DNA from: Isoetes taiwanensis
Taxonomy: Eukaryota > Streptophyta > Lycopodiopsida > Isoetales > Isoetaceae
Direction: 5' to 3'
Length of the DNA stretch: 64,000 nt
Assembly (NCBI GenBank): GCA_021234155.1
Contig: JAJEKV010000005.1
Coordinates: 10,472,572-10,536,571 of the forward strand
Shown piece after piece: positions 9,827-63,832 of this stretch. Made by a program: the position numbers and the translations under genes. Each line of letters begins with the position of its first letter. Within the stretch, counting starts at the first letter, position 1. A model generated the notes under the pieces. It was given only the letters and a program-made list of their open reading frames with translations. It had not been told where the DNA came from and searched no databases.

Positions 9827-11430
9827 TCAATGATCAGAGAAGAACTTCAAACTGCAGTCCAAATGTTCAAACCATTTCTGAACTTTGTAAAACTTGCTTT
9901 CAGTTAGTGCTTTAGTGAACACATCAGCTAATTGATCTGAAGTGCTAATGTATTCCATCTGAATATATTTCCTGCTAGCCAGTTCCCCGATAAAATGCAT
10001 ATTCAATTCTATGTGCTTTGTTCTTTCATGGTCAACTGGATTTTTCACAATTGCCATACAACTTTGACTATCAGTTAAAATCTTTGTTGGCTCTGTTTGA
10101 ACACATCCAAGTTCTTCTAGCAATCTCATGAGCCATACCACTTCTTTAGATGCTAGAGATGCAGCTGAATATTCTGCCTGAGCAGAAGACATTGCCACTG
10201 CACTTTGCTTTTTTGTTCTCCAAGATATAGGTCCACCTGCTAGAAAAATGACATAACCAGTTGATTTTCTCATACTTAAGTCCCTTCCCCAGTCAGCATC
10301 ACTGTATGCTTCCAATTTTAAATTAGAATTGTTAAATTTGATTCCAAGATCTCTGGTCCCCTTTAAATATCTCAGAATCCTTTTTCCTGTCATCCAATGT
10401 GCTTTCTGGGATTATGACATCTCCTGCTAAGAATGTTTACTGCATATGCTATATCTGGGCGAGTATTGTTTGATAAATATAAAAGACAACCTATGAGAGC
10501 CCTGTATGGTATATCCTGCATTTCTTTTATTTCTGATTCATTCATCTCAATGTCAGCAATTAAATTGTGACCCGGTTCCACAGGCGTTTTGACAGTATTG
10601 GCATCTAATAAGTTGAACCTAGTCAGCATATTTTCTATATGCTTGCTCTGCTTTAGACATAGCTCCTGCTTGTTTCTGTTTCTTACCACTTCAATGCCTA
10701 GAAACTTCTGCAATTCTCCAAGATCTGTCATGTGAAAACGCCTCTTCAAAATGTCTTTGCAATAATTTAGAATATCAAGACAATTCGCACCCATAATGCA
10801 ATCATCTACATAAAGAGCTATAATGCAGAATTTTGAGTCAGCCCTATTCCCATCATTTCTAAGCTTCTCAAAATTTTGTTCTCTGAGGAAATTATCTATG
10901 CAAAGATACCATTCTCTAGGTGCTTGTTTGAGGCCATAAACAGCATGTTTCAGCTTCCATATTTTGTTGTTTTCAATTTCAATGCCAGCTGGTGATTTCA
11001 TGTAAATGTCTTCCTCTATTTTGGCATTCAAAAAAGCAGTTTTGACATCCATGTGATGCAATTCTAAATTCCAAGTTGTTCCCAAGTCCAATAGTAGTCT
11101 TACACTTGTAAGTTTAACAATTGGAGAGTTCTCCCTTTCTTTTGAAGCCTTTTGCTACTAATCTTGCCTTAAATTTCTGGCTGCCATCAGCACATGTTTT
11201 AATTTTAAAAATCCATTTGCTTCCAATTGCTGTTTTTCTCCTACCTCATAAGTTTTAGTAGTTTTGAATAAGTTTAATTCCTCCTCCATTGCAACCAGCC
11301 ATTTATCCTTTCCTTCACAATTTAATACATCTTCATATGTTTGAGGAGTCATTGTATCTTCAAGTATTGCCATAACTTGCTCGATTTCCTCCTCAATTTC
11401 CTCTTCTTCAATTCTGTCTAATCTTTTGCT
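9827..11430 (-). pseudogene. Copia reverse transcriptase and RNase H
   Basis: The minus strand encodes the RT start (AIGSKWIFKIKTCADG, ARLVAKGF), HMDVKTAFLNA, the catalytic box LYVDDCIMG, and the RNase H region (AYSDADWG, STGYVIFL, AEYSAAS, HIELNMHFI). The YVDD aspartates are intact. The frame is broken: a frameshift near 11240, a deletion and return to the first frame near 11110-11160, and a one-base shift near 10392 between the RT thumb and MTGKRILRYLKGT. Confidence 0.9.
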
Positions 11431-11643
11431 TCTTCCAGTATTATGCCTGCCATATGCATTTGTGTCAGTTCCAGCTTTTTCCAGAAGTTTCTCAGCTTGA
11501 GTCTTCCTCCTTTTGAGTGCTTACCTTAAGTGCTTCCATTCTCAATGTTGGTCTTGTCAAGCCTCTCAGTCTGAGCTTGATTTTGGCCACCATTTTGTTC
11601 CTCATCACTGTCATAGTCTGCTGTCTGTGTTGTTTGTTCAGAA

Positions 11644-13359
11644 TTATTTTTTTTTCTCCTTTGGTAAATCTATTTTGTAAATATTCCTGTCTTTGTATAC
11701 CACTTCCTCCTTAAAGAAAACATCTCTGCTAATTACTATAGACCTGTTTTCTGGAATGAAAATCCTGTACCCTTTTGACTCACTGTCATATCCTACCAAG
11801 TAACCAATTTGAGCTTTGTCATCCAATTTCTTCCTTAGTTCAGCAGGAACATGTACAAATGCTAAATATCCATATGTTTTTAACATGCTGAAGTCTAGTT
11901 TGCCTCTATTATTTGACCATAGGAGTTCAGGAACATTACCTTGGAGGCTTGCTGTAGGAAGATTGTTTTGAATCAGTATAGCAGCTTTGAGGGCTTCTTC
12001 CCAAAGATAATTTGGTAAGCCAGAGTGTTTGATCATGGATCTCACAGCATCCATTATTGTTCTATTTTTTCGTTCAGCAACTCCATTTTGATGTGGACTA
12101 TACCTGCATGTCATTTGCCTTTTAATGCCATTAGCAACACAATATAATTTGAATTTGGTTGAGAGGTATTCCCCTCCTCTATCAGATCTGACATATTTCA
12201 CCTTTTTCCCTGTTTCCCTTTCAACTTCATTAACATATTGTTTGAAAGCAGTCAGGGCTTGAGCTTTTCTTTCTAGACAATAAACTTTGCAGAACCTGCT
12301 GAAATCATCTATAAAAGATATAAAGTATCTCTTATTAGTTCTTCCCCTGATGTTCATTGGCCCACAAAAATCTGTGTGTATTAACGCTAATGGTCCATTT
12401 GATTTTTTTTTGCTTTTGAGAAATGAGAATCTATTCAATTTCCCAAGTAGACATCCTTCACAAATGAATTTTTCTGGATTGATTGCTTTACACTCCAGCC
12501 ATTCTTTCTTAATCATATAGTTATTACTGCAATGAGTATGTACCAATCTGTTATGCCAAATTTCTGTTTCTGAGATATGCAGATCATTAATGCGATGACA
12601 TTGCACATTGTCCATTTGGAACAAATTCCCAACACGTTTAACATAAAACTTTAATTCATTTCCAAGAAAAATGGTACATGCTTTTGAATCAAAAGTGATT
12701 CTGTAGCCTAGATCTACTAGCTGGCTGATTGATATGATATTTTTGAGAATACTTGGAACACACAACACATTTTCAATGTCCACAACTTGTCCTTGCAAAT
12801 CCATTAATTGCAACAGTCCTTTCCCTTCGATTTGCTGGAGTTCTTCATTGCCTACTTGGATATTTTTGGAATGTGTCCCTCCAAAGTTCTTGAGAAGATC
12901 AGTAGTTTGAACTACTGATCTTTCAGCTCCACTATCAACTACAAGTGCACTAGACTTGTGATTGGCTTCATTTTTATCAAGCATTGCAAATGCAAAATTT
13001 ACCTCATCTTCATCCTCCGATTCTTCCTTTTCTGATTCTTTTGTCACATATGTGCCTGCAGGTTTCTTTCCTCCTCGACCCCTATTATAATTTGATTTTC
13101 CTCCTTTGTTAGAACCCCCAGTCCCTCTTGTTTTGTTATAATCCTTTGGAGTTGGACACTTTGCAGCTATGTGCCCCTTTCCCCCACACGTGTAGCAATT
13201 GAATTCTTTGTTTAATTTAGGGCAATTGCTTTTATAATGGCCTGATTCTTGACAGTGAAAGCATGCCTCCTTTTCATTTCTTCTTTTACCAGCAAACAGT
13301 ATTTTTGATGCTTCAACATCTTCTCCTTTTATCATTTTCCTTTGCTCAACCTCTGTTCT
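11644..13359 (-). pseudogene. Copia CCHC knuckles, protease and integrase
   Basis: A 563-codon open stretch (13335 down to 11644) contains two zinc knuckles (about residues 25-38 and 47-60, CFHCQESGHYKSNC and CYTCGGKGHIAAKC), the protease site VVDSGA (about 132-137), the integrase zinc region (CEGCLLGK), and the core motifs HTDFCGP, YFISFIDD and SDRGGEY. The protease and integrase active residues seen look intact. It is joined in frame to gag through one TGA at 13357-13359. Downstream the frame ends at a stop next to a run of nine A at about 11645, after which the linker continues with further shifts. Confidence 0.93.
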
Positions 13360-14025
13360 TCAAATATTCTCTGCTTCTTCTCTAGTTTTGGCCATGTTTC
13401 TAATAAACATGGCCAGCTGTTCATTTTCCCCGATAGATCTAGCAATTGCAAGCACTTGATATCTTTCAGTCAGATTAACACCAGCTCCACTAAGGTCAGC
13501 CACTATATTGTCAAAAGTGTTGAAGAATTCAGAAACATCCTTATCTTCTCTTAGCTTAAGATTTCTCAGTTCATTTTCTAGTAGATCTATTTGAGATGAA
13601 CTCTTCTCTTCATAATGTTTAAGTAAAAACTTCCACATCTCTTTAGGACTCATGTTTCTCAATTTTAATCTAATAGTGGGACTAACCTTGCATGTGATGA
13701 TCCCTTGAGCCTCCTTTATCCTGGCATAAACGGATCTTCCACTGCTCACAGCAAGAGAAGTTCCCCCAGATGTTGTGCTGCCTGAGCTTCCAGAACCTGC
13801 AGCCACAGCATAAGATTGGGTAGCACCACCACCAGTAGCAGACCTTGCAGGTGTGCTACTTTCTGCACCAGTTTGAGCATAAGCTCCTTCATTTGGATCC
13901 ACTAGATCCCATAATTCTTCTACCTCTAGGATGTGTTTAACAGCATCCTTCCAAACTTGAAATCCAGGTCCCCCTTTGTAGACCTCTACCGTGCTTAGCA
14001 GATTTGCTCAAAATCTACTAGCCAT
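13360..14025 (-). pseudogene. Copia gag with early stop
   Basis: The ATG at 14025-14023 (minus) is the natural start, 21 bases after the LTR, and the encoded protein includes WKDAVKHILEVEELWDLV and LKHYEEKSSSQIDLLENEL, typical of Copia gag (UBN2-like). A TGA at 14010-14008 is the sixth codon, and another TGA at 13359-13357 separates gag from the zinc-knuckle region. Both are in the same frame as the following pol. The first stop would block translation from the natural start. Confidence 0.9.
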
Positions 14026-19401: not shown

Positions 19402-19587
19402 CTGATCTAAATCACTGCCCTTTCAGCTGCAACAACACCTGAAATACAATCTTTCTCACAAATCTCGCAAATTAGGTTTTTTTTTTCCTCAAACATCCAG
19501 TAAAAACAAATAAAAGGCATTTTTAATGATCAATTTGAAATCTACATCCTTATTTGAGACTGTAAAGACCATTGTTGCATTGTGGCT

Positions 19588-20661
19588 ATGGCGGCCACCA
19601 GATCAGTGGTGCGTAATATTCTCCATCGCCTTTTGCATAATGTTGCAGCTTTGGAACCAAAGAAGACCCTTTTACCTGGCTTTAGCGACGAGTTCACAAC
19701 AAAATGGCAGGGCCGCCTTGCAGAAGATGGCAGTGATAATGTTCTCAAACATAGGGTTGCCATGTTTCTTGAGTTTGGATTAAATGAAAAGGATCTTGAG
19801 TCTGCAGTTGGGCGCTATCCTTCCCTTCTGAAACGAGATTTGGAACAGAAGCTGAAGGAGCTTGAGCTTCATTTAAACAAATTAGGGCTTGGAAAGGAGT
19901 TTATAGCACGCCTGTTGGTGAGCTCACCTCATTTCATTCCTCGGATCGATGCCATTCTTCTTAATCTGCGCCATGTTGCTGAGTTTTTATCAAGGTATGG
20001 CCTGGAAGATTGTATTCTTTCTAAAATGTTATCTACACAGCCACTGTCTGTCTTGTTTATTTCTGAGCATAATATTAAGCGCTTGGACGAGATTTTGCAA
20101 CAGTATAAGATAAGTGCCCAAGTTTTAGGTAAAATCCTTAAAGTAAGGCCATCATTTTTGTGTAGGTCTTATGACACCTTGGCTGCTCGTATAGAATTTA
20201 TGTCGAGCCTTGGCATTGATCAAAGCTCCAAATATTTTGTAACAGCATTAGCAACGTATTCATCATATGGAATTCTCACATTAGAAAAAAGGTTGGGCTA
20301 TTTATTGAGCCTAGGACTTCCACCTCAGAGTATTTATCACATTCTGCAGATATATCCTCAAATACTGTGCCTAAAAAATGAGTATGTTGTGGAGAAATTT
20401 AGATACCTCACAGAGGATATGAAGTATCCCTTGGATGAAATTCTCAAGGCTCCATTTTATTTGCTCTCTAGCTTGGAAAAAAAGGTAAAACCCCGCAACA
20501 GGGTTATATTATTTCTTCAATCAAAGGGACTTCTGAAGCGGCGGTATGCCCTAAACACCATTATATATATGTCCTCTGGACAATTTGTGACCAGGTTTGT
20601 AGCACTTCACCCTGATGCTGCAGCAGTGTATAAGGGTGATCTCCAGGCTAATCCTGAATAG
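19588..20661 (+). CDS. mitochondrial transcription termination factor (mTERF) family protein
   Basis: An uninterrupted single-exon frame of 357 residues starts at ATG 19588. The N-terminus (MAATRSVVRNILHRLLHNV) is Arg-rich, lacks acidic residues and can form an amphipathic helix, as expected of a mitochondrial or plastid targeting peptide. The rest is built of about eight mTERF repeats of roughly 30-36 residues with the leucine/proline signature, for example FLEFGLNEKDLESAVGRYP, LGLGKEFIARLLVSSP, LGLPPQSIYHILQIYPQIL. Plant mTERFs bind organellar nucleic acid and act in transcription, splicing or tRNA maturation. The specific paralogue cannot be named. Most plant mTERF genes are also intronless or nearly so, and the length is usual. 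It is the only clearly intact gene in the window. Confidence 0.9.
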   Translation: MAATRSVVRNILHRLLHNVAALEPKKTLLPGFSDEFTTKWQGRLAEDGSDNVLKHRVAMFLEFGLNEKDLESAVGRYPSLLKRDLEQKLKELELHLNKLGLGKEFIARLLVSSPHFIPRIDAILLNLRHVAEFLSRYGLEDCILSKMLSTQPLSVLFISEHNIKRLDEILQQYKISAQVLGKILKVRPSFLCRSYDTLAARIEFMSSLGIDQSSKYFVTALATYSSYGILTLEKRLGYLLSLGLPPQSIYHILQIYPQILCLKNEYVVEKFRYLTEDMKYPLDEILKAPFYLLSSLEKKVKPRNRVILFLQSKGLLKRRYALNTIIYMSSGQFVTRFVALHPDAAAVYKGDLQANPE

Positions 20662-22372: not shown

Positions 22373-25282
22373 ATGCAAGTTCCATGGACTTTCATGACCA
22401 GAAATCAGGCTTATTACCTTCTTCAGGAGTGCAAAGATGTCCATTATACTAGACGAGTGCAATCTCTCATGGTTTATAATGGATTTGATTCAATTTCCGT
22501 TTTTGGGGACCATCTCATTCGGTTATTTACCTATTAGGAGCGTTTGTTTGAAGCAAATCAGACATTCAATGCTATTCATGCTCTAACTTCACATACATGG
22601 GCTACAATAATTTGTTCAAATGCCAAGCTTGGGCAGAGTCGGACAGCCCTTGAATTGCACAGTAGAGTGCAACTCTCAGGTTCAAAAAGTGATAAGCATA
22701 TCTATGTTGCTGTTATTAAAGCATGTACAATGACATGCTCTCTCCCACAAGGAAGGATTATACATAACCAGATCAATAAATGTGAATTACAATCAGAGGT
22801 CATTGTGTGCAGTGCCTTGCTCCATATGTATGCCACATGTAAATGTCTCCAGCAAGCATGCATTGTGTTTGAAAATCTGCACAATCGGGATTTTGAAACA
22901 CAATGATTGCAGCATATGCTGAACAAGGGGAGTGTCATCTAGCTGTAGAATGTTTCGAAAAGTTATAACAGGAAGGCATAAGGCCAAATGTCGTGTCTTG
23001 GAATGCTCTAATTTCATGATGTGTCCAAAATGGGGAAGACCATTTTGCTGTACATTTTTTTGAGAAGATGCAGCAGGAAGGTTACAAACCAAATGCAATC
23101 GGGCATTCTCAAGGTGTGTGCTAGAATAGAGGAAGGGAAGTTGATTCATGAACATATAATTAGAAGTGAACTGAATTCAGATGTGATGGTTGCTAGCTCC
23201 ATAGTTCATATGTATTGCATGTTCGGTAGTCTTCATGAAGCATTCACCATTTTTGACAAAGTACACAACCGAGATGTGGTGTCATGGGATGCCATTATTG
23301 CAGGATATGCCCAGCATGGAGAAGGGCAATTGGCCTTAAATTGCTTTTATAAAATGCATTTAGAAGACATGCATCCAAATGAAGTTACATTTGTTATGGT
23401 CTTGAAAGCTTGCACCAGCATAGCAGCAAAGAAGAGGGCAGGACAATCCATGGAAATATTATTAGAAGAGGATTAAGATGGAGTGATGCTATTGGAAGCA
23501 GCATGATTCAAATGTATGCCACATGCGGAAGCCTGGTGGAGGCATGTAATGTCTTTAGTCAGTTGTCTAATCAAGGTGTGGAGATGTGGAATGCAATGAT
23601 TACCAGCTTTGCTCAACATGGTGAAAGCTTATTGACTCTAAGTTATTTTGAGAAGATGCAACAGAATGGTATAAAACCTGACAAAACCACTTTTTCAAGC
23701 GTTCTGAACTCATACGCTATCTTGAGAATCCCCAAGGAAGGGAGGCTCATTCATGAGATGATACTTTAGAGAGAGCTCCAGTGTGATATGATTATAGGGA
23801 ATACCCTGCTTGATATGTATGCCAAATGTGGACATTTGAACTGTCATGTCTTTTACAATATGCCAATACGGGATGTAGTATCATGGGTTGCCATGATTGT
23901 TGGATACATACAGCATGGAGAATACATTTTAGCTCTAGAGTGTTTTGACCAAATGGAAGACAGTGGCATACAACCAAGTGTGGTCCTGTGGGATGGAATA
24001 ATCTCAGGTTATGCCCACGGCAAAGAGAGCCATATGGCTTTAGAATGGTTTCAAAAGCTGAAGGATGATGGATTTAGACCAAGTGAACTTACATTCTTGG
24101 GTGCCTTAAAAGCATGCAGCAACATGAAGGCAATAGAATGGGCAAGGTTTCTTCATGAGCAGATTATCGATACTGGCCTCTTATCTAATGTTGTTGTAGG
24201 TAGCACCTTCGTTGATATGTATACCAAATGCTATAGCCTTAAAGAAGCAAGTACTGTGTTTGTTTTCTTGCTGTTTAAAAATGTTGTTTCATGGACAACA
24301 ATGATTGTGGGATATGCTCAACATGGATATGGCTCTTTGGCACTTTGCTGTTTTGAACAGATGCAAGTAGAATGCATAAAACCAAACGAGTTCACATATT
24401 TGGGCACCTTGAAAGCATGTGGCAGTGAAGGAGATATAACACGGGGAAGGCTCATACATGAGCAAATCAAGCAAGCTAAACTACAAGGAGAAGTGGTGTT
24501 AGGCAATGCATTGATTGATATGTACATTAAATCTGGGAGTCTTCAGATGGCATCTAAAGCATTTGATGCACTGGAAGCTCAATACGAGATCTCGTGGAAT
24601 GCAATGATTGCAGGATACAGAAAATGTGTTGAAGCCTCGTTGGCCATAGAATGTTTTGAAAGAATGCAGGAAAAAGGAGTATATCCAGATGATTACTTTC
24701 TTGAGTGTATTAAAAGCGTGTGCTAACATAGGTGCCGTACACCAAGGAAGGCTCACACATGATAAGATCTTTTTGCATAGTTTCCCATCGGTCGGCCTAC
24801 AATATTGTGTCATGGTGCACAATGATTGCAGGGTAGCCCAGCATGGAGAAATCCTTCTAGCAATACAATGCTTTGATAAGATGCAATATGCAGGTGTAAT
24901 TCCAACTGCAATGCCATTTGCCTGTGTTGTTATTGCGTGCAGTCGTGTGGGTCTAGTTAATGAAGGATATTCGTATTTCAAATCTATGCTAGATTGTTAT
25001 GGCATCACACCAACTGTGAACCATTATGGTTGCATCCTCTTAGGTCGCTCAGGATATCTGAATGAGGCAGAGAATTTTCTGTCGACTGCTACCATGCAGA
25101 ATGATGTTGTTGGATGGACAAGCTTGCTTAATTCTTGTAGAATGCTTGTTGACACCACAATAGGACAATGCTGTTTTGATGAGCAAATTATATATTTAGA
25201 TACCCACTGGACTGCAGGATATGTTTTAATGTCAAATATTTACGCTGATTCTATGAAGCAAGGTTATAGCTTGAGTATTTGA
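22373..25282 (+). pseudogene. PLS-class pentatricopeptide repeat protein, multiply disrupted
   Basis: From ATG 22373 the sequence encodes a long series of P, L and S type PPR motifs, recognisable by repeats such as VGSTFVDMYTKC, VVSWTTMIVGYAQHG, ALCCFEQMQ, IKPNEFTYLGTLKACG. It ends in an E-type extension (YFKSMLDCYGITPTVNHYGC, GWTSLLNSCR, AGYVLMSNIYADS); no DYW deaminase domain follows. Plant proteins of this class are imported into mitochondria or plastids and direct RNA editing or processing. The frame is broken at least six times: TAG at 22535-22537, a shift near 22895, stops at about 22968 and 23018, a shift near 23100, another near 23440, TAG at 23767-23769 and a shift near 24700. It is an old single-exon pseudogene. 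Confidence 0.9.
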
Positions 25283-55290: not shown

Positions 55291-56510
55291 TTAGAGTGCT
55301 CTCCATCCAGCAGCCACCCGCTTGGTAATACACTGTTCCCAAAGTATGTTCTTACAGAATTCTACACCAAGATACTTGTAGCTATCTACAACTTCAACTT
55401 CGCAGCTATCATAGTGCATAGTGGGAACATTGTGACGAGAAGATTGAACTACCAAAAGCTTGGTCTTTTGGAGATTAACACGCAGACCAGTGTTCTCACA
55501 AAAACTGTGCAGAGCATGTAAATGTTGCTGCATACTAGCAGCGGTATGTGCCAGAAGCGAAACATCATCAGCATACATAAGTTGCCTAATGATATAGTGT
55601 GCCAAATGTGGACCTTCGCCGCCATGATTATCAAGCCATTCTTCCAATTGATCAATGTACAAGCCAAAGAGTGTAGGAGATAAAGGGCAACCCTGATATT
55701 GCTAGTGATTTGAGTACATGATGCTGGAAATTTAGCAAAAACCCTTTCATAGAGCCGATAAACTGCATTTTGAAGATCTTGTGGAACCCCAAGTGCCTGC
55801 AAGCGCTGCCAAAGAAGCTCGCGTGGTACTGTATCAAAAGCAGAAGTAAAATCCACAAAGCATATATGGAGGTCTTGTTTCAAACTTCGACTATGTTCAA
55901 TAAACATGCGCAATGTGAAAATATGGTCTATTGTAGAATGACATGGACGAAAGACTACCTGTCCTACATCACGTATACCAGTATGTTCTGCCCATGATGT
56001 CAACTGCTTCTCAGTAAGACTGGCTAAGAGCTTTGAAAATATGGAACTTACCATGATCATGCGATAATTAGAAGGGTCATTCTTATCACCTGCTTTGTAA
56101 ATTGGTACGACCTTACTGACAGCCCAAGTTTCTGGCAAGCCTTCTTGCAAAGCTTGATTTAAAAGAGTAGTGATGATTGGAAGCAATAGCGGACCCCCCC
56201 ATTTAAGCAATTCTGCTTGCAAACCTTGAAGATCAGGAGACTTGCCATTAGATAGATGCCGCAGTCCTTCTTTGACTTCCTCCTCTGTGAATTGAAGAAT
56301 ATCACCTACCAAAGGAGGCACATAATTAAGGACCCCAGGATGATCATATAAGTGGACCAATCGCTCATCCCATTGCTGCATAGAAATATCTCCAAGGGTA
56401 GGAGGTGGTCGATATAATATTTTGCGCCAGAAGGTCCGAGGTGCACGTAGCAGTAATTCAAACATTTGCTTTTGATGCTCAGCGACAAAGCGTGCCTTCT
56501 TGCGTTTCAA
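55291..56510 (-). pseudogene. LINE reverse transcriptase
   Basis: The order is LRHLSNGKSPDLQGLQAELL, WAVSKVVPIYKAGDKNDPSN, FRPCHSTIDHIFTLR, CFVDFTSAFDTVPRELLW, then a frameshift near 55700, then SPTLFGLYIDQLEEWL, LMYADDVSLLAHT and VVDSYKYLGVEF. The YADD active site is intact. The frameshift lies between the last conserved block of the fingers/palm and the YADD block, so no single product is made. Confidence 0.92.
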
Positions 56511-57021
56511 AACAGACTTATAATTCTGAATGGCATTATGTCACGTATCTGGCTCAACTATCGTTCGCAAGTGGTTTTTAAGCTGCTTGCAGTCTTCATC
56601 AAACCAGGCATTTCTAGGAAAGGATTTCCTACCAGCATGAGCAACACCAGAAGTGCGTGTACCAAAGCAAGAGACAGCAGAAGTAAGCAAAGCATCAGCA
56701 AATGCTGCATTATGCTCTTGAAGAGTTGGGTAATCCAAAATGCCTGCAAGCGTAGGAGCTAATGTCTGTGCATATTCAAAAGATCTAGAATAAGTTTAGC
56801 GAATGCGAGGGGCAGGAGTCTGGATAGCAATGGGTTGAAGAGGTGGAAGCTGCCACTTTAATGACAAATAAAGTGGATAGTGATCATATTTTATCTCCTA
56901 ATCTCTATGCCTTGTGCCAATTCGAAAATCTGAAATGAGATCCAAGGCTTGCACTTGGGAAATGACATAATCAACAACACTAGTACCACCACCCTGCCTA
57001 TCCTGTCTGCATGTAATACCT

Positions 57022-62761: not shown

Positions 62762-63392
62762 GTGGAGCTTTTGCGTGTCACATGGCTTGAACATTTTTCG
62801 CTTCAAGAATTTGATCTCATAAACCAGCACGCCTCTCTTGAAGCACGGGCCCTTCTGCTCTTGCCCTCATCAGACCAGCATCTTCCTCTGGACACCTTGC
62901 AGAATGCATCTCTTGCAAGCCCGACGATTTCCTTGGACGGTAAGCTTTTGTTTCAGATACTGAATTTGCTCTACTCTGCCATCTTGTCGTCTCCCTCCTC
63001 TTGCCCAAAATTCTGCATTGATGCCCAAACCCAGACCCAAGAGAGCACATGCACTGACGATGGGATGTAAATAGAGGCCTATGGGACTGCAAATGTAGAG
63101 ATGACAGAAAACGATCATGATGGTACACATGAACATGAGCAGGATCACAGTCGCAGGCAGGATAAGGACCCTGGGAACGCGCAGGCAGCAGAATTCGCTC
63201 AGAGGGCAGTGGACAGAAGCTTGAATTTGCGCATTGTCAGTGTGCCAGAGCCAAATCCTGCCTTTGATACAGAACAGGCAGCTAACTTCTTTACAGATGT
63301 TATGCATATTCAGATATCCCAAGTTGTATCTGAGGCAATTTGTCACAACACGGATGAGCCGAAGCTGGACATGACCATTGCCTCAAGTTGCC
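62762..63392 (+). pseudogene. hypothetical protein, interrupted by a stop and by a MITE
   Basis: One reading frame runs from about 62762 to the MITE edge at 63392 with a single in-frame TAA at 63068-63070. It encodes a leucine-rich first half (LEHFSLQEFDLINQHASLEA, LLLLPSSDQHLPL) and a polar His/Asp/Glu-rich second half (ENDHDGTHEHEQDH, then AEFAQRAVDRSLNLRIVSV, TEQAANFFTDVMHIQ). I do not recognise the family. The frame has no certain start. The MITE insertion adds its own codons after 63392 and truncates any product. Coding-like sequence also resumes after the MITE (63833-63979). Confidence 0.35.
63384..63392. repeat. 9-bp target site duplication CAAGTTGCC, left copy
   Basis: CAAGTTGCC directly precedes the left inverted repeat and is repeated exactly at 63824-63832. 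Confidence 0.95.
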
Positions 63393-63823
63393 GGGCGCCC
63401 GTAAATCGAGTCCGGGATGTGGTGTTTCCGGACAATTTGCCTATGGTGTTTCTGGACGTCCAGAAACACCCAATGCTTCTGGAAGTGGTGTTTCTGGCCA
63501 AAAAGAGGTATTTCTGGCCAAAAACCAAGCGCGAAACTGCGCGGCGGAGCCAAAATCTTTGGTCGGATCCTTCTTGCAGCTCCCTGGACGGCTTGAAATG
63601 CTTCAAAAGCCCTTCCAATCGCTTTGTCTTCCTCTTTAACACTAGTTTGATGAAGAGAGGAAGTGATTTGAGCTCAGATAGAGCCGGATCAAGCAAAAAA
63701 TGACCTAAAACAGTTGATTCTGGGCTTAAAACTGTGAAGTGCACAGTGGCTGATAACGGTGGCCAGAAACACCACAAAAAAAGTCCGGAAACACCACATC
63801 CCGGACTCGATTTACGGGCGCCC
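63393..63823. mobile_element. Mutator-like MITE with 41-bp perfect TIRs
   Basis: The first 41 bases (63393-63433, starting GGGCGCCCGTAAATCGAG and ending TGTTTCCGGAC) are the exact reverse complement of the last 41 (63783-63823). A perfect 9-bp target duplication flanks them. Nine-base duplications and long TIRs are characteristic of Mutator-like elements. The 431-bp element has no transposase, so it must be mobilised in trans. Inside the TIRs the motif GTGTTTCTGG and its complement recur, including a palindrome of 26 bp near 63453-63478. The intact TIRs and duplication point to a recent insertion. Confidence 0.93.
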
Positions 63824-63832
63824 CAAGTTGCC
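63824..63832. repeat. 9-bp target site duplication CAAGTTGCC, right copy
   Basis: This is the exact partner of 63384-63392, directly after the right inverted repeat. Confidence 0.95.

What the first reader, a model, noticed from the sequence alone, without database searches (positions are those of the whole stretch)
63393..63823. Well-preserved Mutator-like MITE with 41-bp perfect TIRs and 9-bp target duplication
The two ends are exact reverse complements over 41 bases and are bracketed by identical CAAGTTGCC duplications. The element carries repeated GTGTTTCTGG motifs and a 26-bp palindrome inside the TIRs, which could be transposase binding sites. It has interrupted a coding-like frame. The family may be undescribed and its source autonomous element is not in the window.
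Basis: partly seen in the sequence, partly recalled or inferred. Interest (0 to 1): 0.75.

Follow-up and report, generated by a model that had tools for sequence, protein, structure and literature searches.

The report
Quillwort Mutator MITE with shared motif
This is a young, short, non-coding jumping-gene copy (a MITE of the Mutator kind) in what appears to be a quillwort genome; it shares its ends with larger relatives that repeat the end motif in internal arrays, and in related families ends and arrays tend to carry the same family-specific motif, as if a protein of their own recognised it.

Summary
Confirmed and extended. Window 63393-63823 is a 431-bp element with 41-bp perfect TIRs and a 9-bp CAAGTTGCC duplication. 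It is a multicopy MITE: 404 core and 185 TIR places. Of the 40 copies scored, 28 have exact 9-bp duplications, against 1 of 1560 mismatched flank pairs. One copy (not the window's) has empty-site paralogues. The assembly fits Isoetes taiwanensis. Seven 4.3-15 kb elements share the TIRs; the one scanned has a MULE transposase domain (E 5.2e-20). So: a MULE MITE, probably moved in trans.

The motif proved more interesting. Long-element loci hold 25-61 copies, largely 21-bp-spaced. Across eight motif types the array motif matches the element's own end better than chance (best of 40,320 pairings; a pre-specified replication was weak, 234 of 5,040). A convergent second gene has a C2H2-like finger and an Ulp1 cysteine box. 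This resembles Arabidopsis VANDAL/VANC anti-silencing, but in TIR-bearing MULEs of a lycophyte. Binding and anti-silencing are inferred. Not supported: palindrome inside the MITE's TIR; interruption of a gene.

The parts
63393..63823 (.). MULE-type MITE, whole element (431 bp)
   Evidence: the 40 scored genome matches cover almost the full length at 94-100% identity (40 of 1053 candidates scored)
63384..63392 (.). left target-site duplication CAAGTTGCC
63824..63832 (.). right target-site duplication CAAGTTGCC
63393..63433 (+). left 41-bp TIR
   Evidence: perfect over 41 bp
63783..63823 (-). right 41-bp TIR
63420..63434 (+). motif copy in left TIR, CCGG version (TGGTGTTTCCGGACA)
63444..63458 (+). 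motif copy (TGGTGTTTCTGGACG), left half of the palindrome
63457..63471 (-). motif copy, right half of the palindrome
63445..63470 (.). 26-bp perfect palindrome, just inside the left TIR
63486..63500 (+). exact array-type motif TGGTGTTTCTGGCCA
63506..63520 (+). motif copy, 2 mismatches
63760..63774 (-). exact array-type motif TGGTGTTTCTGGCCA
63782..63796 (-). motif copy in right TIR, CCGG version
63527..63757 (.). core with no convincing match in the seven long elements sharing the TIR; origin unknown
   Evidence: element positions 135-365

Best explanation
A young, non-autonomous Mutator-superfamily MITE. Shown: it shares TIRs and motif copies with long (4.3-15 kb) MULEs of the same genome, the one scanned having a MULE transposase domain, and family members duplicate 9 bp on insertion. 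Inferred: the MULE transposase binds the shared ends and moves the MITE in trans by cut-and-paste. The 14-15 bp motif (TGGTGTTTCTGGCCA here) in and beside the TIRs is most likely a recognition site for an element-encoded protein (the transposase or the second, zinc-finger/Ulp1 gene); the long elements repeat it in phased internal arrays, perhaps to load the protein and keep the element active or unsilenced, and motif and arrays have switched sequence together between MULE families.
For: MITE: 40 scored genome matches near full length (40 of 1053 candidates); 404 core and 185 TIR places, reversed controls 0; 28 of 40 exact 9-bp duplications against 1 of 1560 mismatched pairs; at L012 the junction with one duplication is spanned by 38 of 39 non-self places (40 of 639 candidates scored), 3 of 3 inspected without a gap there. 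Source: seven both-ended long elements; the MITE's first 84 bp are 91.7% identical in the three compared; duplications of at least 8/9 in 5 of 7; transposase-piece matches inside 5 of 7 (against the places); PF10551 in L042 (E 5.2e-20) and in one-ended L048 (E 5.2e-19). Motif: 25-61 sites in L040-L045, 27 in L048, arrays of period 21; array unit against own end, 7 of 200,000 and best of 40,320 pairings; end-matching unit positions more conserved than the rest in 8 of 10 arrays, nominal p<0.05 in 5 of 9 testable. Second gene: C-x4-C-x12-H-x4-H invariant in 8 of 8 aligned.
Against: No excision, transposition or binding was observed. No empty site for the window copy. The MITE core has no convincing match in the long elements, so simple internal deletion is not shown. 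Among 40 MITE copies motif columns vary as much as the core (1.0% against 1.0%; terminal non-motif columns 0.6%). A control window 150-250 bp inside the end matched the array unit as well as or better than the end itself in 5 of 10 loci, so the match is not confined to the TIR. The pre-specified replication was marginal (234 of 5,040), its clear hits lay in a motif type already seen, and 3 of 7 rows did not score highest in their own piece. In one search, 2 of 8 rows (L050, L073) are not highest. For the focal family itself the conservation test gives p 0.10. None of the seven both-ended elements showed a transposase frame as long as the 731 aa of L048.
Confidence: 0.85

Rival explanations
1. 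The arrays are ordinary satellite-like slippage products grown from the terminal sequence of each family, with no bound protein; the end/array match reflects common origin or gene conversion.
For: Arrays differ in copy number between copies of one family; tandem repeats evolve in concert by themselves; motif columns of the MITE are not specially conserved; no binding data.
Against: In the focal family TIR copies read GGAC where arrays mostly read GGCC, and often CCGG for CTGG, so the arrays are not recent copies of the TIR; end-matching unit positions are more conserved than the spacer in 8 of 10 arrays.
Confidence: 0.35
2. The element is a MITE of another superfamily with 8-10 bp duplications (hAT, P or other) rather than Mutator.
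For: TIR and duplication length alone do not prove a superfamily.
Against: A long element with the same TIR has a MULE domain, 72.2 bits against a cut-off of 27.6, and transposase-piece matches lie inside 5 of 7; the dominant duplication is 9 bp.
Confidence: 0.03
3. The motif serves transposase loading at ends and subterminal repeats, or the transposase itself does any unsilencing (as reported for MURA at TIRs of non-autonomous copies, passage in PMC10398659); orf2 has no such role.
For: Motif copies sit in the TIR and just inside it; the MITE, which has no orf2, keeps the TIR motif copies.
Against: Most copies lie about 0.5-4.5 kb from the nearer end, between the convergent genes and beyond orf2, not at the termini.
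Confidence: 0.4

Closest known systems
Mutator-like elements (MULEs) and MULE-derived MITEs of plants
   Same: 9-bp duplication, long TIR, MULE transposase domain in a long relative, short non-coding derivative
   Different: Host lineage; TIR sequence (a 21-letter text search found no paper; the listings of topic searches show none by title); core unrelated to the long elements read
Arabidopsis VANDAL / VANC anti-silencing MULEs (PMC5735166, PMC10398659; passages read)
   Same: Short motif repeated in tandem in non-coding DNA, differing between related families; a second gene beside the transposase
   Different: Perfect TIR stretches of 27-147 bp here, TIRs degenerate in VANDALs according to PMC10398659, although the survey PMC6446971 lists 46-174 bp TIRs for some of its VANDAL group; arrays match the end motif; no DUF1985 found in orf2; protein binding and methylation effect untested
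Kaonashi / Ulp1-carrying MULEs of angiosperms (review PMC13317346; passages read)
   Same: Ulp1-type cysteine box in a second MULE gene
   Different: Here with TIRs, with a C2H2-like finger upstream, in a lycophyte; only the cysteine-box exon was recognised, not a whole Ulp1 domain

Membership tests
Mutator superfamily MITE | 9-11 bp target-site duplication | tested here: met
   28 of 40 copies exact 9 bp, 30 of 40 at least 8 of 9; mismatched pairs 1 of 1560
Mutator superfamily MITE | Shared TIR with elements encoding a MULE transposase | tested here: met
Mutator superfamily MITE | Short, non-coding, multicopy and uniform | tested here: met
   431 bp; 404 core places; 0.2-3.6% from the majority sequence in the 40 scored copies
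Mutator superfamily MITE | Mobilisation in trans by the relative's transposase | not testable with these tools
   needs an excision assay
VANDAL/VANC-type anti-silencing | Family-specific short motif in non-coding tandem arrays | tested here: met
VANDAL/VANC-type anti-silencing | VANC homologue with DUF1985 | tested here: not met
   No DUF1985 match at E up to 1 in the 8 orf2 pieces of A1 or in 3 orf2 pieces; HMMER filters drop most weak matches, and only part of orf2 was scanned
VANDAL/VANC-type anti-silencing | Encoded protein binds the motif and removes methylation | not testable with these tools
   no binding or methylation data held
VANDAL/VANC-type anti-silencing | Absent or degenerate TIRs (given as a VANDAL feature in PMC10398659; the survey PMC6446971 lists TIRs for some group members) | tested here: not met
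   perfect TIR stretches of 27-147 bp in the seven long elements
Ulp1-carrying MULE (Kaonashi-like) | Peptidase C48 domain in a second gene | tested here: inconclusive
   PF02902 E 5.5e-6 over 35 residues in L041; cysteine box in 7 of 8 loci; the genome-wide PF02902 search (150 of 800 candidates scored) listed none of these copies

The most novel reading that the evidence does not exclude
TIR-bearing MULEs of a lycophyte carry a self-recognition system that works like VANDAL/VANC: a fast-diverging zinc-finger/Ulp1 protein and its motif arrays co-switch specificity with the motif at the element's own ends, coupling anti-silencing to transposition. MITEs ride on it by keeping the end motif. If so, such systems arose far from angiosperm VANDALs, either anciently or by convergence.
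Probability: 0.3. Interest if true: 0.8.

Novelty: new variant of a known kind. Interest (0 to 1): 0.56.

Why it matters
The MITE itself is a new member of a known kind. What its motif led to is more useful: related MULE families in one genome that tend to carry one family-specific motif both at the ends and in internal arrays. That would give a natural series for asking how a transposon's DNA recognition and possible escape from silencing evolve together, and whether VANC-like systems exist outside angiosperms and in MULEs with real TIRs.

Tried and rejected
Empty site for the window copy: joined flanks gave no place spanning the junction (41 matches, 40 of 151 candidates scored); left-flank similarity ends at 63314 or earlier. 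Empty site for L022: only four weak one-sided matches besides itself. Deletion origin of the core: no convincing match. Selection on motif columns within MITE copies: no difference from the core. Ulp1 genome-wide: did not list the family's copies. orf2 fold: mean pLDDT 46.6, 42-57 around the finger (strand-strand-helix, low confidence), so no fold search was made; PDB profile hit to an Sp1 finger E 0.73, not significant. L048 as a complete element: only one TIR in the sequence read. Rfam on the window: nothing. A first search for the Isoetes paper by terms found nothing; it was fetched by DOI. The other-superfamily idea was rejected on the MULE domain.

Selection effects. The 40 MITE copies are the 40 scored of 1053 candidates, hence likely the youngest. 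The list was cut at about 100 of 185 places, so more long TIR pairs may exist. For the 12 loci and for L050 only the transposase-side end was read; that end was recognised by eye from its resemblance to known ends after the arrays had been seen, with no partner end or duplication checked; L070 and L075 are the least certain. The 8 motif types were chosen one per visible type after looking. The period limit was widened from 30 to 60 after the first rule mis-picked L066; L073 stays mis-picked in both and was kept. From the first 14 loci 4 were dropped: L069 and L071 (end found, no array in the stretch read), L072 and L074 (no end found). One of 8 orf2 pieces fetched (L099) was left out of A1 because it contains a stop. 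In the replication note the range of earlier end positions was slightly wrong: L070 lies at about 1,890 bp, still within the stretch fetched.

Full report
What is there. The window holds a 431-bp element at 63393-63823 whose ends are exact reverse complements over 41 bp, between direct copies of CAAGTTGCC. The 26-bp palindrome is real but lies at 63445-63470, inside of rather than within the 41-bp TIR.

Host. The genome has 1,658,258,908 bases in 1110 contigs, one of them 17,402,236 long. The Isoetes taiwanensis paper (passages read) gives 1658.30 Mb, 204 scaffolds with N50 17.40 Mb and 909 unplaced contigs (PMC8566536). The match is close; identity is inferred, not stated by a tool. PPR and mTERF matches in the window fit a land plant.

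Copies. A whole-element search scored 40 of 1053 candidates, and these 40 match nearly end to end at 94-100%. The TIR 27-mer with up to 2 mismatches occurs 95+90 times and the core 31-mer with up to 3 mismatches 190+214 times; both reversed controls are 0. Of the 40 copies (window included) 28 have an exact 9-bp duplication and 30 at least 8 of 9; among 1560 mismatched flank pairs 1 is exact. The 40 lie 0.2-3.6% from their majority sequence.

Empty site. L012 sits in a LINE-like repeat. Its flanks joined with a single duplication are matched across the junction by 38 of 39 non-self places (40 of 639 candidates scored). In 3 of 3 inspected alignments there is no gap at the junction, and a 9-base gap appears if two duplications are kept. 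The window's own junction has no paralogue and L022 gave only weak one-sided matches.

Source elements. Seven inward-facing TIR pairs lie 4.3-15 kb apart (the list was cut, so there may be more). Five of seven have duplications of at least 8 of 9 bp. The MITE's first 84 bp are 91.7% identical to the first 84 bp of the three compared; its core is not convincingly found in any of the seven. L042 has a 533-aa frame with the MULE domain (E 5.2e-20), the only one of the seven scanned; matches to a 107-aa transposase piece fall inside five of the seven (L041, L042, L044, L045, L046). A one-ended copy, L048, has a 731-aa frame with the same domain. The transposase piece gave 150 scored matches of 1314 candidates, 52-100% identical. 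L046+L047 contains a copia-like frame inside. The MITE is therefore best read as a non-autonomous MULE derivative, presumably moved in trans (inferred).

The motif. Loci L040-L045 (element plus 200 bp of flank on each side) hold 25-61 sites within 3 mismatches of TGGTGTTTCTGGCCA, the commonest spacing being 21 bp, mostly on one strand except in L043 (22 and 17); one-ended L048 holds 27 (arrays). L046+L047 was not counted. The MITE holds seven. In relative L050 (90% identical over the transposase piece) the fifth base of the array motif is A in 50 of 57 sites; its inner end copy also reads GGTATTTC, its outer copy GGTCTTTT. Twelve more loci were then read. With L042 and L050 that makes 14; an end was recognised in 12 and both end and array in 10. 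For L050 and the twelve only one end was read, recognised by eye. Array motifs, from the TRF units: GGTGTTTCTGGCCA (focal), GGTATTTCTGGCCA (L050), GGTTAATCAGGACA (L065), GGTTAATGTGGCCA (L066, L067), GGTAAACCTGGACA (L068), GGTTCAAACATGACA (L070), GGTTTATCTGGACA (L073, L076) and GGCTATAACATGTCA (L075).

Test. Scoring the top TRF unit against 100 bp from the end, for one locus per motif type, own pairs are reached by 7 of 200,000 random pairings with periods up to 30; with periods up to 60 the observed pairing is the best of all 40,320, and of 5,040 with L050 left out. In 6 of 8 rows the own end scores highest; L050 and L073 do not. A control window 150-250 bp inside the end scored as high as the end or higher in 5 of 10 loci (L042, L066, L070, L073, L076): motif copies also lie further in, so this shows matching between terminal region and array, not a signal confined to the TIR. 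A replication written down before fetching used 8 new loci: 7 had arrays and 234 of 5,040 pairings reached the observed sum. Three of its loci carry the identical 15-mer TGGTTAATGTGGCCA in array and end, but belong to a type already seen; C997 scored 11 in its own piece, as it did in those of C908 and C996; C908, C1028 and C954 did not score highest in their own; no end was recognised in the pieces of C1028 and C954; C1044 had no array. So the replication is supportive but weak.

Binding site or satellite? Unit positions that match the end are more conserved across array copies than the remaining positions in 8 of 10 loci, nominal p<0.05 in five of nine testable (L050, L065, L068, L075, L076); the focal L042 gives p 0.10 and L070 0.06. 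The exceptions are L066, whose unit holds two motif copies, and L067, whose unit is nearly all motif. In the focal family TIR copies read GGAC where arrays mostly read GGCC. These speak for constraint, not proof. Within the 40 MITE copies motif columns vary as much as the core (1.0% each, 11 subfamily columns left out) and more than terminal non-motif columns (0.6%), so nothing shows selection there.

Second gene. Facing the transposase gene lies orf2. Scored matches number 97 (85 of 784 candidates). Its identity falls faster than that of the transposase piece in several shared loci (C1025: 79% transposase, 39% orf2; C997: 86% and 63%), but not in C1031 (95% and 95%), and a catalytic core was compared with a longer protein. 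In eight aligned pieces, seven of them 38-90% identical to the first, C-x4-C-x12-H-x4-H and a basic patch are invariant. The model is poor there. A cysteine box NG[SL]DCGV occurs in 7 of 8 loci and Pfam calls Peptidase C48 in L041 (E 5.5e-6).

Comparison. In Arabidopsis, VANC proteins bind short motifs that form tandem repeats in non-coding parts of their own VANDAL families, and motif and protein change together (PMC5735166, passages). VANDAL TIRs are called degenerate (PMC10398659, passages), though a survey lists 46-174 bp TIRs for some of its VANDAL group (PMC6446971, passages). Some VANC genes carry Ulp1 (review PMC13317346, passages). The quillwort elements share the layout but have long exact TIRs, tie the array motif to the ends, and show no DUF1985. 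I therefore say 'works possibly like', not 'is a VANDAL'. PMC6446971 has no hit for Isoetes, Selaginella or lycophyte in its held text; the two Isoetes genome papers have none for MULE or Mutator; supplements were not looked at. Text search 6 found no paper; of searches I saw the listings only (10 of 15, 8 of 8 and 7 of 7 rows), none of which names such a family by title. All this covers open-licence papers only.

TIR evolution. TIR position 12 (A or T) agrees between the two ends in 37 of 37 copies with comparable ends (3 skipped), while positions 27-28 differ between the ends in 12 of 37, and all four left-end combinations of 12 and 27 occur. The seven long elements also agree at position 12 (7 of 7). 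This suggests homogenisation between the ends or several sources.

Verdict. An ordinary MULE MITE as an object, correctly spotted; its motif opens onto a less ordinary pattern of family-specific matching between ends and arrays that deserves a blind survey and a binding test.

Noticed in passing
40 MITE copies (window and L001-L039): TIR position 12 is identical at both ends in 37 of 37 comparable copies although two alleles exist, while positions 27-28 differ between ends in 12 of 37.
   Followed up: partly
L013 and L029 (C1034:32.905 and 32.926 Mb): The same insertion lies in a duplicated block about 20.6 kb apart, 98% identical over 1101 bp.
   Followed up: no
L046+L047: The 15-kb TIR pair contains a copia-like gag-pol frame of 1030 aa plus a second frame, apparently a nested insertion into the MULE.
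   Followed up: no
L048:9184-9861: A further tandem array with another motif type (TGGCATGTTGGAGCC) lies beyond the MULE end; the same type occurs in L078.
   Followed up: no
window 63093-63314: Left flank of the MITE belongs to a repeated sequence (151 candidates, 40 scored) whose similarity ends at 63314 or earlier.
   Followed up: partly
window 10390-14004 (-), 55449-56537 (-): Copia-type gag/integrase/RT frames and a separate RVT_1 frame.
   Followed up: no
window 19558-20658 (+), 23770-24723 (+): mTERF and PPR frames, consistent with a land plant nuclear genome.
   Followed up: no
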